Shown: one piece after another, positions 6,341 to 8,808 of the stretch
Layout of the letters: every line of letters begins with the position of its first letter
Position numbering within the stretch: position 1 is the stretch's first letter
From: Deltaproteobacteria bacterium RBG_13_61_14
GTDB taxonomy: Bacteria > RBG-13-61-14
Length of the DNA: 14,544 bases
Direction: 5' to 3'
Assembly: GCA_001797815.1 (NCBI GenBank)
Contig: MGQK01000077.1
Coordinates: 25,545 to 40,088 of the forward strand
Translations under genes and position numbers: made by a program
Notes under the pieces: generated by a model
Told to the model about the DNA's origin: nothing
Seen by the model: only the letters and a program-made list of their open reading frames with translations
The model's database searches: none

Positions 6341-6901
6341 TCAGTTGGAGTTTCCCCGGTGAAACCCGATCCGGCGAGGGGAGGGAGAGGATGGGGTGGT
6401 AAGCCGGCGGAGGGCGTCGAAGACCACTTTGAACTGGGCGTCGTATTTCTTCTCCAGGGCCTCCAGTTTCCGGGCCAGCTCCCGGTTTCCGGCCAGCATT
6501 TCCCGGAGTTTGACGAAGGCGCGCATGATGGCGATATTGACCTGAACGGCCCGCTCGCTCTTGAGGACACTGGAGAGCATGGCCACGCCCTGTTCGGTGA
6601 AGGCATAGGGCAAGTATTTGATATTCTTGCCTTTCTTCAAGATCACAATTTGTGATCTTGAAGAAGTGTATAGTTTGGCACTTGAAACCACAATTTGTGA
6701 TTTCAAGAGAGAATATTCTTCCCAAGTCAGTTGGAACATGAAATCCTCGGGAAAACGGGAAAGGTTTCTCTTCACGGCCTGCACCAGAACCCTGGGTTCC
6801 ACTTCGTAGAGCTCGGCCAGGTGCATGCTCAGCATAACCTTTTGTCCTCGGATCAAATAGATGCGCTTTTCAATCTGTTCGACAGGGATAATCTGACCCA
6901 T
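6341..6901 (-). CDS. ORF6N-domain protein (phage-antirepressor-like DNA-binding family)
   Basis: This 186-residue protein carries an ORF6N domain, a KilA-N-related putative DNA-binding module known from phage antirepressors and also common as a stand-alone bacterial gene. Visible family features are [21 protein letters not shown] (split here at residues 14-34), [11 protein letters not shown] (49-59), [18 protein letters not shown] (96-113) and [19 protein letters not shown] (116-134). A coiled coil (about 138-160) follows, then a tail ending RRIGFH. Between 67 and 90 lies an insert-like region with two SQIV peptides (68-71, 83-86), each encoded by a DNA palindrome. The ATG at 6901 has GAGGGG at 6911-6906, 4 nt away. 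The 5' half is AT-rich (about 37% GC near 6601-6660) compared with the 3' end (about 57%). No other phage gene is nearby. The biological role is unknown. Confidence 0.85.
6633..6665. repeat. Perfect 16-bp inverted repeat inside the ORF6N gene (copy 1)
   Basis: The arms 6633-6648 and 6650-6665 are perfect reverse complements separated by one base (T6649), with the core CACAATTTGTG at 6644-6654. In the ORF6N reading frame it encodes the peptide around [10 protein letters not shown] perfect 33-nt palindrome inside a coding region is far from chance and marks a likely inserted or amplified element. Confidence 0.9.
6681..6707. repeat. Imperfect inverted repeat inside the ORF6N gene (copy 2)
   Basis: Arms 6681-6693 and 6695-6707 pair at 12 of 13 positions (mismatch 6688/6700) around T6694, with the same core CACAATTTGTG at 6689-6699. 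In frame it encodes LKSQIVVSS. It lies 15 nt from copy 1 in the same translational phase (centres 45 nt apart, a multiple of three), so both keep ORF6N open. Confidence 0.88.
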
Positions 6902-6963
6902 GCTTCCCCTCTACCTCTCTTAATCTGCATCCCTGGTTCGGCAAAAACATCTCTTACGCCCTC

Positions 6964-7002
6964 GATCTTCTTGCCTTTGTTCAAGGGCACAATTTGTGAC
7001 CC
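6964..7002 (-). repeat. Duplicated ORF6N-like fragment upstream of the ORF6N gene
   Basis: Read on the minus strand, 7002-6964 matches 6658-6620 within ORF6N at 33 of 39 positions by my count. It encodes GSQIVPLNKGKKI against [13 protein letters not shown]. Outside this stretch the similarity fades quickly. It looks like a decayed partial copy of the ORF6N insert region or a second copy of a mobile repeat. Confidence 0.65.
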
Positions 7003-7006
7003 TGAA
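6980..7006. repeat. Imperfect palindrome upstream of ORF6N (copy 3)
   Basis: Arms 6980-6992 and 6994-7006 pair at 11 of 13 positions around T6993, with the core CACAATTTGTG at 6988-6998 identical to the two copies inside ORF6N. Compared with copy 1, the arms have changed at several bases with only partial compensation. Confidence 0.75.
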
Positions 7007-7019
7007 TCCGGTCCTGCGG

Positions 7020-7044
7020 TTAAGGTGGCAAACAGGCACCTTAA
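7020..7044. repeat. 8-bp hairpin downstream of lysK
   Basis: TTAAGGTG at 7020-7027 and CACCTTAA at 7037-7044 form a perfect 8-bp stem with a 9-nt loop, 61 nt past the lysK stop. No T-tract follows on the minus strand, so intrinsic termination is not supported. It may be an RNA 3' structure or a processing site. Confidence 0.45.
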
Positions 7045-7104
7045 AGAATTAGCCGCTGCGCGCCTTACCCTTACTTTTAGGGCCCAAAAAATTGTTATTT
7101 TAAA

Positions 7105-8808
7105 TTACACTTTAATTTTTTGCAAGTCCAGCATCTTTTCAGGAGGAGATTCCTCGATAAACTTTTTTATTTCTTCAATTACCAAAGGCACCCTGGCAAC
7201 TTCTTCTCTTACTTTTGGGACCCGGATAATCATTTCAGCCAAACGATCTTTCCCGATAAGTTTGGCAAATGTCCCAAATCGTGGTCCTTGGTCCTGGCCC
7301 AAAAGGACTTGATAAATTACTTTGAAAAGTTCGGACGGTTTGATCTTAAACACCTGGGCTATAAGAAAAACCATTGCCTGCATGACCTCGGCATTATCCC
7401 CGGAGTAATTTTTTAATAATTGAAAAAGAGTTGCCAGAAGCAAGGCTTCATTTCCTTGGGGTTGTCGGTACTTTTTGTCGGGCTCGATGAAGTCGCGGAA
7501 GTAGTGGAGCCCGGCCGAGATCAGGCTCTCGACCAGCTCGCGGTTCTCGGCGGCCTGGGGGTCGTAGCGGAGCAAATAGCCATAAAGCAACTTGGCGTCA
7601 TCTGCGCCAATGCCTTGGATCAGGTTCAGGACCAGGCTGTAGTTGATCGCGCCGGTGTAGGCCGGGGTTTCGCCCTTGAGTTTGGCTAAGTGCCAGATCA
7701 CCGAGCTTTGCGACGGGCCCTCTTCCAGCGAAGGGTAGCGGGCCAGCTCGACCAGGTAGTCGTCCACGCTCTTGGGGATCACGTCGAAGTAAAGCCGGCG
7801 CTGCTTCTTCGGGTTCTGGTAAAGGTAGTAGAGCATGGACTCGAGCGGCGCGTAGCGCAGCCAGTCCTCCACCGCCAGGCCCTCGCCCACGCTCTTGCTG
7901 ATCTTTTTGCCGTCCTCGCTCAGGAACATCTCGTAGGACATCCCGGCCGGCGCCTCGCCGCCCAAGAGCCGCACCAGCTTGCCGGAAAGCTTGGCCGAGT
8001 CAATCAGGTCCTTGCCGAACATCTCGTAGCCGACGCCGTAGGAGAGCCACCGGAGCGCCCAGTCCATCTTCCAGCCCACCTTGGCGTTGCCGAAGAGCAC
8101 CGAGACTTCGGCTTGATGACCGCAACCCTTTACCGGCGGCTCGCCGAAGACGCCGTCGCAAACGTAACTGAGCGAATCCCGCTCCGGGTGGTAAGCGGTG
8201 ACGCGGGTGGTGTAAAGCCGGCCGCATTTGGGGCAGACCGGGAAGAAGGGCGACCAGTCCTCCCGGTTCTCCTCCTTTAGCGTGGGCAGAATGACGGCCT
8301 TGACCTGTTCCACCTTTTGCAGGATCAGGCGCAAGCCCTCGTTGAAAACGCCGCGCCGGTATTCTTCGGTGGAGCTTTTCAACTGGTAGGGGAGTTGATA
8401 GGCGTCCAGCATTTCCTGGAGCTTCTTTTCCATGTGGCCGGCGTAAGAGTCGCAGCAGCCAAAGGGGTCCGGGATCTGGGAGATCGGCCGGCCCAGGTGC
8501 TGCTCCAGCAAATCCGGCCGGGGCAGGTTCTTGGGCACCCGGCGCAAGCCGTCCATGTCGTCGCAAAAGGCATAGAGCACGCCTTGCCGGCCAGTCAGGT
8601 GCTCGAAGGCCTGGAGCACGAAAGTGGTGCGGACCACTTCGGCAAAGGTGCCGATGTGCGGCAGCCCGGAGGGGCCGAAGCCGGCCTGGAAGATCACCGG
8701 AGGGGCGCCGGCGCCCGTTCGGCTGAGCTCACGGCCGAAAGCCTCACCGGCGGATCCGGGCTTGATCTTTTTGGCTTCCTGGAAGGGCCAGGCCACTGGA
8801 TCGCTCAT
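7105..8808 (-). CDS. lysK: Lysyl-tRNA synthetase, class I type
   Basis: This 567-residue enzyme charges tRNA-Lys with lysine using ATP. It is the class I LysRS found in archaea and scattered bacteria, not the class II LysRS of E. coli. Class I signatures are plain: GPSGLPHIGT (45-54) is the HIGH motif and KISKS (302-306) is KMSKS. A probable zinc site is formed by CPKC (192-195), C217, C229 and H231. The helical C-terminal half is the anticodon-binding cage typical of this family. The start at ATG 8808 overlaps the prfB stop as ATGA. An upstream extension of the frame exists but lies inside prfB and looks non-coding. The last 110-120 codons (7105 to about 7440) are near 40% GC against about 65% around 7861-7920. 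It stands where many bacteria place a class II lysS after prfB. Confidence 0.95.
   Translation of the reverse strand: MSDPVAWPFQEAKKIKPGSAGEAFGRELSRTGAGAPPVIFQAGFGPSGLPHIGTFAEVVRTTFVLQAFEHLTGRQGVLYAFCDDMDGLRRVPKNLPRPDLLEQHLGRPISQIPDPFGCCDSYAGHMEKKLQEMLDAYQLPYQLKSSTEEYRRGVFNEGLRLILQKVEQVKAVILPTLKEENREDWSPFFPVCPKCGRLYTTRVTAYHPERDSLSYVCDGVFGEPPVKGCGHQAEVSVLFGNAKVGWKMDWALRWLSYGVGYEMFGKDLIDSAKLSGKLVRLLGGEAPAGMSYEMFLSEDGKKISKSVGEGLAVEDWLRYAPLESMLYYLYQNPKKQRRLYFDVIPKSVDDYLVELARYPSLEEGPSQSSVIWHLAKLKGETPAYTGAINYSLVLNLIQGIGADDAKLLYGYLLRYDPQAAENRELVESLISAGLHYFRDFIEPDKKYRQPQGNEALLLATLFQLLKNYSGDNAEVMQAMVFLIAQVFKIKPSELFKVIYQVLLGQDQGPRFGTFAKLIGKDRLAEMIIRVPKVREEVARVPLVIEEIKKFIEESPPEKMLDLQKIKV

What the first reader, a model, noticed from the sequence alone, without database searches (positions are those of the whole stretch)
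6620..7006. Family of in-frame palindromes amplified in and upstream of an ORF6N gene
Three palindromes share the identical 11-nt core CACAATTTGTG (6644-6654, 6689-6699, 6988-6998). Copy 1 is a perfect 16-bp inverted repeat with a single-base spacer. Copies 1 and 2 lie inside the ORF6N gene with centres 45 nt apart, in the same phase, each encoding a SQIV peptide and making an apparent insert (residues 67-90) between the conserved MFQLT and [10 protein letters not shown] blocks. I recall ORF6N proteins elsewhere with SQ-V/I-type repeats at this point, which suggests a recurrent in-protein palindromic element. It could be a small mobile repeat that spreads while keeping frame, or a diversity-generating hotspot in a DNA-binding protein.
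Basis: partly seen in the sequence, partly recalled or inferred. Interest (0 to 1): 0.68.

Follow-up and report, generated by a model that had tools for sequence, protein, structure and literature searches.

The report
Palindrome inside DNA-binding-protein genes
Genes for a widespread class of bacterial DNA-binding proteins (ORF6N) nearly all carry a long, nearly perfect DNA palindrome inside the stretch that codes for the protein's presumed DNA-contacting loop; it is kept as DNA even where the reading frame differs, which suggests that a DNA signal, most likely the protein's own binding site, is built into the gene itself.

Summary
The three CACAATTTGTG palindromes are real; in the whole genome all five exact copies lie in or just upstream of two of its three ORF6N genes, and the third gene carries a different palindrome at the same codons. 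In 99 ORF6N genes from many phyla, found by protein sequence alone, 82% hold a strong palindrome between MFQLT and YxFTE, against 0.15% of synonymous recodings. Bases T(-6), C(-3), A(-2) are nearly invariant; other stem bases vary but co-vary across the arms. The same palindrome occurs in two reading frames (SQIVT, VTNCD), so it is selected as nucleic acid. G.T mismatches are not favoured over A.C, so an RNA hairpin is unlikely. Similar sites are about 40-fold enriched 25-50 nt before the start codon. Genomes without ORF6N almost lack the palindrome (2/44 against 25/29). Palindrome plus 3' neighbour behaves as an exchangeable cassette. KilA-N and RhuM genes carry palindromes with other cores. 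Most likely it is a DNA site for the ORF6N protein (portable autoregulation); binding is untested. A mobile in-frame repeat is not supported; a diversity hotspot is partly supported. No report was found in the literature held.

The parts
6341..6901 (-). ORF6N-domain gene (186 aa; Pfam PF10543, residues 13-112)
   Evidence: ORF; Pfam E 5.8e-32
6633..6665 (.). internal palindrome 1 (33 nt, 16-nt arms, perfect), codes for [11 protein letters not shown]
6681..6707 (.). internal palindrome 2 (27 nt, one mismatched pair, CTTGAAATCACAAATTGTGGTTTCAAG), codes for LKSQIVVS
6980..7006 (.). upstream palindrome TTCAGGGTCACAAATTGTGCCCTTGAA, centre 92 nt before the start codon
6964..7006 (-). non-coding copy of a whole cassette (palindrome + NKGKKI codons), 86% identical to 6620-6662
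6620..6662 (-). in-gene counterpart of the 43-nt copy (most of palindrome 1 plus the KKGKNI codons)
7020..7044 (.). fourth, decayed palindrome TTAAGGTGGCAAACAGGCACCTTAA upstream of the gene
   Evidence: sequence; pairing read by eye

Best explanation
The palindrome is a double-stranded DNA site of 25-33 bp, core T-NN-CA-NNN-TG-NN-A, built into the codons of the loop or wing of the ORF6N DNA-binding domain. Most likely the ORF6N protein, which ends in a long helix that could dimerise, binds it as a dimer. Binding inside its own gene (codon about 65-75), and in about a fifth of genes also just before the start codon, would hold down its own transcription by roadblock or by bridging the two sites. 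Because the site travels inside the reading frame, a gene moved by itself to a new genome stays self-regulated, and swapping the loop cassette moves the site with it. Shown: the site, its conservation at DNA level, its tie to ORF6N genes, the upstream enrichment, the cassette exchange. Inferred: that ORF6N protein is the binder, that it represses, and how.
For: DNA-level selection: strong palindromes in 82% of 99 genes against 0.15% of synonymous recodings, 87/99 genes beyond their own null at p<0.006. The 5' Leu codon is TTG in 103 genes with Ser in the 3' arm, TTA in 28 and CTA in 4 with Leu there, one exception. Same palindrome and same invariant bases in two reading frames, 181 and 21 genes. 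178 double-change cells against 53+-6 shuffled. G.T 20 against A.C 31 mismatches, and loops about equally often in both orientations (AAA/TTT 16/14), as for a double-stranded site. Tie to ORF6N: 69/79 sites in or within 800 nt of an ORF6N gene in 15 genomes; 25/29 ORF6N genomes against 2/44 ORF6N-free genomes, Fisher p 3e-13. Upstream: 19 sites at -50 to -26, 0.44 expected; Butyrivibrio has nearly the same 27-nt palindrome inside and at -43. Place in the fold: between strands 55-57 and 99-102 of the window protein. KilA-N and RhuM genes have palindromes with their own cores, and one KilA-N gene has a site with the KilA-N core upstream.
Against: No binding data exist. Only 38/184 genes have a site within 160 nt before the start. 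Upstream and internal variable bases are not clearly coupled within a locus (p 0.10 and 0.24). A simple operator would not need every variable stem base to be mirrored. The wing assignment rests on weak fold matches (Z at most 5.5) and a low-confidence loop.
Confidence: 0.5

Rival explanations
1. Recombination or cassette-exchange site: the palindrome (as cruciform or hairpin) is the place where loop cassettes are exchanged between ORF6N genes, so it is kept because it promotes diversification of the DNA-binding loop.
For: Genes with 80-86% identical flanks carry different cassettes, even in different reading frames. Cassette type needs 85 changes on the flank tree against 100 for shuffled labels. 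Tandem cassettes in one gene and a whole cassette copy outside the gene in the window.
Against: Ordinary homologous recombination in the conserved flanks would do the same. It does not explain sites 25-50 nt before the start codon without cassettes or the invariant core bases.
Confidence: 0.15
2. Mutational self-perfection: replication template switching keeps correcting one arm to match the other, so an old palindrome stays perfect and drifts symmetrically without any function of its own.
For: Symmetric but free identity of stem bases, almost no G-U intermediates, loop sequences about equally often inverted; template switching is known to create and maintain perfect stems (PMC8794818).
Against: Does not explain presence at one homologous place in most genes of many phyla, invariant T/C/A positions kept in two reading frames, sites upstream of start codons, or separate cases in KilA-N and RhuM. 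It may well act together with selection.
Confidence: 0.15
3. RNA hairpin in the mRNA (translation pausing, mRNA stability or binding of the protein to its own message).
For: A perfect 13-16-bp stem would form in RNA; upstream sites lie in the probable 5' leader.
Against: G.T mismatches are not commoner than A.C on the sense strand (20:31 coding, 6:9 non-coding); loop orientation matters little; no Rfam match.
Confidence: 0.08
4. Mobile palindromic element that inserts in frame, like Rickettsia palindromic elements or REPs.
For: Several copies per locus, tandem arrays 31-40 nt apart (L207), a few isolated copies between genes.
Against: Fixed homologous place in ORF6N domains, near absence from ORF6N-free genomes, hardly any copies in unrelated genes; no uniform element boundaries, since outer arms differ with cassette type.
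Confidence: 0.07

Closest known systems
Intragenic operators and roadblock sites (gal internal operator, lac O2, CcpA or CodY roadblock sites; own knowledge)
   Same: A protein-binding palindrome inside a coding region, sometimes paired with one near the promoter
   Different: Here the site lies in the codons of the DNA-binding loop itself, in nearly every member of the family across phyla, in two reading frames; binding is not shown
Rickettsia palindromic elements (own knowledge; searched)
   Same: Palindromic DNA within open reading frames, kept in frame
   Different: Those lie in many unrelated genes; this one is at one homologous place in one gene family
PARCEL, palindromic amphipathic repeat coding elements (PMC2996958)
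   Same: Coding repeats with dyad symmetry, spread by horizontal transfer
   Different: PARCELs are tandem 25-residue repeat domains, often in membrane-targeted proteins; here usually one site in a DNA-binding domain
REP palindromes and their RAYT transposase (own knowledge)
   Same: Short palindromes found where a partner gene is present
   Different: REPs are extragenic and numerous; here few, mostly inside the partner gene, which has no recognised catalytic domain (Pfam shows ORF6N only)
Type I restriction specificity-subunit domain swapping (own knowledge)
   Same: Exchange of specificity cassettes between conserved flanks
   Different: No DNA target is carried within the exchanged piece

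Membership tests
ORF6N domain protein | Match to Pfam PF10543 above its cut-off | tested here: met
   110.3 bits against 27.8
Autoregulatory (intragenic) operator | Palindromic site in or near the regulator's own gene | tested here: met
Autoregulatory (intragenic) operator | Regulator binds the site | not testable with these tools
   needs EMSA or DAP-seq
Autoregulatory (intragenic) operator | Internal and upstream sites share specificity | tested here: inconclusive
   core shared, variable bases not significantly coupled; near-identical in Butyrivibrio
Mobile palindromic element (RPE- or REP-like) | Dispersed over unrelated genes or intergenic regions | tested here: not met
   69/79 sites in or within 800 nt of ORF6N genes; 2/44 ORF6N-free genomes
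RNA structural element | Covariation including G-U pairs on the transcribed strand | tested here: not met
   covariation without excess of G.T over A.C
RNA structural element | Match to a described RNA family | tested here: not met
   no Rfam match at E up to 1
PARCEL | Tandem 25-residue amphipathic repeat domain | tested here: not met
   usually one copy, in the ORF6N domain (11/210 genes with two or more)
Winged-helix DNA-binding fold | Helix-turn-helix plus beta wing | tested here: inconclusive
   AlphaFold models and weak matches to MerR-type and Dachshund domains, Z at most 5.5

The most novel reading that the evidence does not exclude
Self-addressed specificity cassettes: in ORF6N, KilA-N and RhuM regulators the nucleotides that code for the DNA-reading loop are at the same time the DNA site that loop reads. 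Exchanging the cassette changes protein specificity and target together, so a freely moving regulator always carries its own matching operator.
Probability: 0.25. Interest if true: 0.95.

Novelty: categorically new. Interest (0 to 1): 0.85.

Why it matters
Many bacterial genes are annotated only as 'ORF6N domain-containing protein', 'KilA-N' or 'RhuM' with no known function or DNA target. A conserved palindrome inside their own DNA-binding codons gives each of them a candidate binding site that can be tested at once. It would be a rare case in which one stretch of DNA is under strong selection as protein code and as palindromic DNA at the same time, in alternative reading frames and in probably three protein families. 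If the protein binds it, it shows how horizontally moving regulators can stay self-controlled without bringing a promoter.

Tried and rejected
Coupling of upstream and internal variable bases as proof of one specificity per locus: not significant. Upstream palindromes as silent donor cassettes: only the window's own copy clearly carries cassette codons, the others do not. RNA hairpin: no G-U excess, no Rfam family. Solved relatives: none by sequence; no Foldseek match with E below 0.001, only weak winged-helix-like matches. Literature: no paper on palindromes in ORF6N, KilA-N or RhuM genes recognised in the open-access library; most subscription journals are not held. Assembly artefact: rejected, because complete plasmids of isolates (Bacteroides, Legionella, Sulfuricurvum, Treponema, Butyrivibrio, Haliovirga, Segatella) show it too, though some with short arms.

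Full report
Observation. Copy 1 is a perfect 33-nt palindrome, copy 2 a 27-nt one with one mismatched pair, 45 nt apart and in the same phase. Copy 3 belongs to a 43-nt stretch upstream of the gene that repeats palindrome 1 plus the codons after it. In the 4.74-Mb genome there are five exact cores, all in or just upstream of two of its three ORF6N genes. The third gene has another palindrome at the same codons, CTTGAGGTGCCATTTTGGCACCTCAAG.

A family-wide feature. I collected ORF6N genes by protein sequence alone: 80 loci from bacterial genomes of many phyla and 23 from viral contigs. Between MFQLT and YxFTE nearly all have a palindrome of 21-35 nt. Synonymous recoding reaches a score of 10 in 0.15% of trials, the real genes in 82%. 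In an enlarged set, which includes some loci fetched through the palindrome model, 195 of 210 genes score at least 8. Other windows of the same loci: 13 of 275 reach 9, ORF6N 188 of 208.

It is kept as DNA. T at -6, C at -3 and A at -2, with their partners, are nearly invariant; the other stem positions vary, but both arms change together (178 double-change cells against 53 in shuffles). In 21 genes the same palindrome stands in another reading frame and codes for VTNCD instead of SQIVT. The Leu codon of the 5' arm is TTG in all but one of the 104 genes with Ser in the 3' arm; with Leu there it is TTA (28) or CTA (4). The relatives L234, L220 and L224 show GGTGCC..GGCACC, GGCGCC..GGCACC and GGCGCC..GGCGCC, consistent with one arm changing and the other following. 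Mismatches are G.T 20 and A.C 31, so the stem does not look like an RNA helix. Loops occur about as often in one orientation as in the other (AAT 77, ATT 55; AAA 16, TTT 14), as expected of a double-stranded site, or of template switching.

It depends on ORF6N. A covariance model of the palindrome searched in 15 genomes found 79 sites: 49 inside ORF6N domains, almost all 168-177 nt from the domain start, 16 upstream, 4 downstream and 10 elsewhere. In 73 further genomes, 25 of 29 with ORF6N have hits and 2 of 44 without (p 3e-13). The model was trained on ORF6N palindromes and only up to 99-150 candidates per genome were scored, so other kinds of palindrome would be missed.

Upstream sites. In 184 genes with enough upstream sequence, 38 have such a site within 160 nt before the start codon. 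The density at -50 to -26 is 4.1 per kb against 0.095 per kb background. Their variable bases are not clearly those of the internal site (p 0.10 and 0.24), which speaks against a simple one-protein one-sequence rule; in Butyrivibrio they are nearly identical over 27 nt.

Cassette exchange. Genes with flanks 80-86% identical in DNA can have wholly different segments, even in different frames (L217/L228, L314/L326, L227/L315). Pairs with 70-75% identical flanks share the cassette type in 29% of cases, 17% expected at random. On a tree of the flanks the cassette type needs 85 changes, shuffled labels 100; the tree rests on about 110 residues and is poorly resolved. The window gene holds two cassettes in tandem, and a third, non-coding copy lies upstream. 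AlphaFold places the segment in a low-confidence stretch between two strands, where a winged-helix protein has its wing; the best fold matches are weak.

Beyond ORF6N. In Bacteroidota genomes, KilA-N genes carry palindromes around TCGAATTCGA that code for FNPVEFDGIK (9 of 14 domains score at least 9). RhuM genes carry palindromes around GGAATTTCC or similar that code for SVVRNFRTT (16 of 21), with coupled R..R or K..F/L codons in the two arms. These were seen late, in one phylum, in small numbers.

Interpretation. The best single explanation is a DNA site for the protein itself, inside its own gene, allowing autoregulation that travels with the gene. The site, its DNA-level conservation, its tie to ORF6N and its upstream enrichment are shown; binding and repression are inferred. 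The mirrored but free stem bases could reflect specificity that changes with the loop, or arm correction by template switching (PMC8794818), or both. If autoregulation were proved, this would be a new variant of intragenic operators; as it stands, no described kind that I tested fits, and no paper that I found in the held library describes it.

Noticed in passing
L352-L360, L365 (Bacteroidota genomes): KilA-N (PF04383) genes also carry long coding palindromes, core TCGAATTCGA, coding for FNPVEFDGIK; L353 has one of 44 nt.
   Followed up: partly
L369-L389 (Bacteroidota genomes): RhuM (PF13310) genes carry coding palindromes such as CAGTTGTTCGGAATTTCCGAACAACTG (SVVRNFRTT), with coupled codons in both arms.
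   Followed up: partly
L352, about -105 from the start of a KilA-N gene: An ORF6N-type palindrome (TTTAAGATCACAGACTGTGACCTTAAA) stands upstream of a KilA-N gene, which hints at cross-regulation.
   Followed up: no
L168 726-756; L181 664-694: ORF6N-type palindromes upstream of what looks by eye like a DUF1016-type nuclease gene, and inside the 3' end of an apparently truncated RhuM-like gene.
   Followed up: no
L068, upstream of the ORF6N gene: One of the few ORF6N genes without an internal palindrome has a 47-nt palindrome and a second one upstream.
   Followed up: no
L207, upstream of the ORF6N gene: Four palindromes with different stems at exact 34-nt steps upstream of the gene, near a truncated ORF6N frame.
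   Followed up: no
L347 (Treponema plasmid), L351 (Segatella plasmid): ORF6N genes whose palindrome has an altered core (TCGAAAATTTCGA; TCAAAAAATTTGA) but is still symmetric.
   Followed up: no
window 7070-7092 and 7208-7230: A 23-nt direct repeat, 78% identical (CTTACTTTTAGGGCCC...), near the end of the lysyl-tRNA synthetase-like gene.
   Followed up: no
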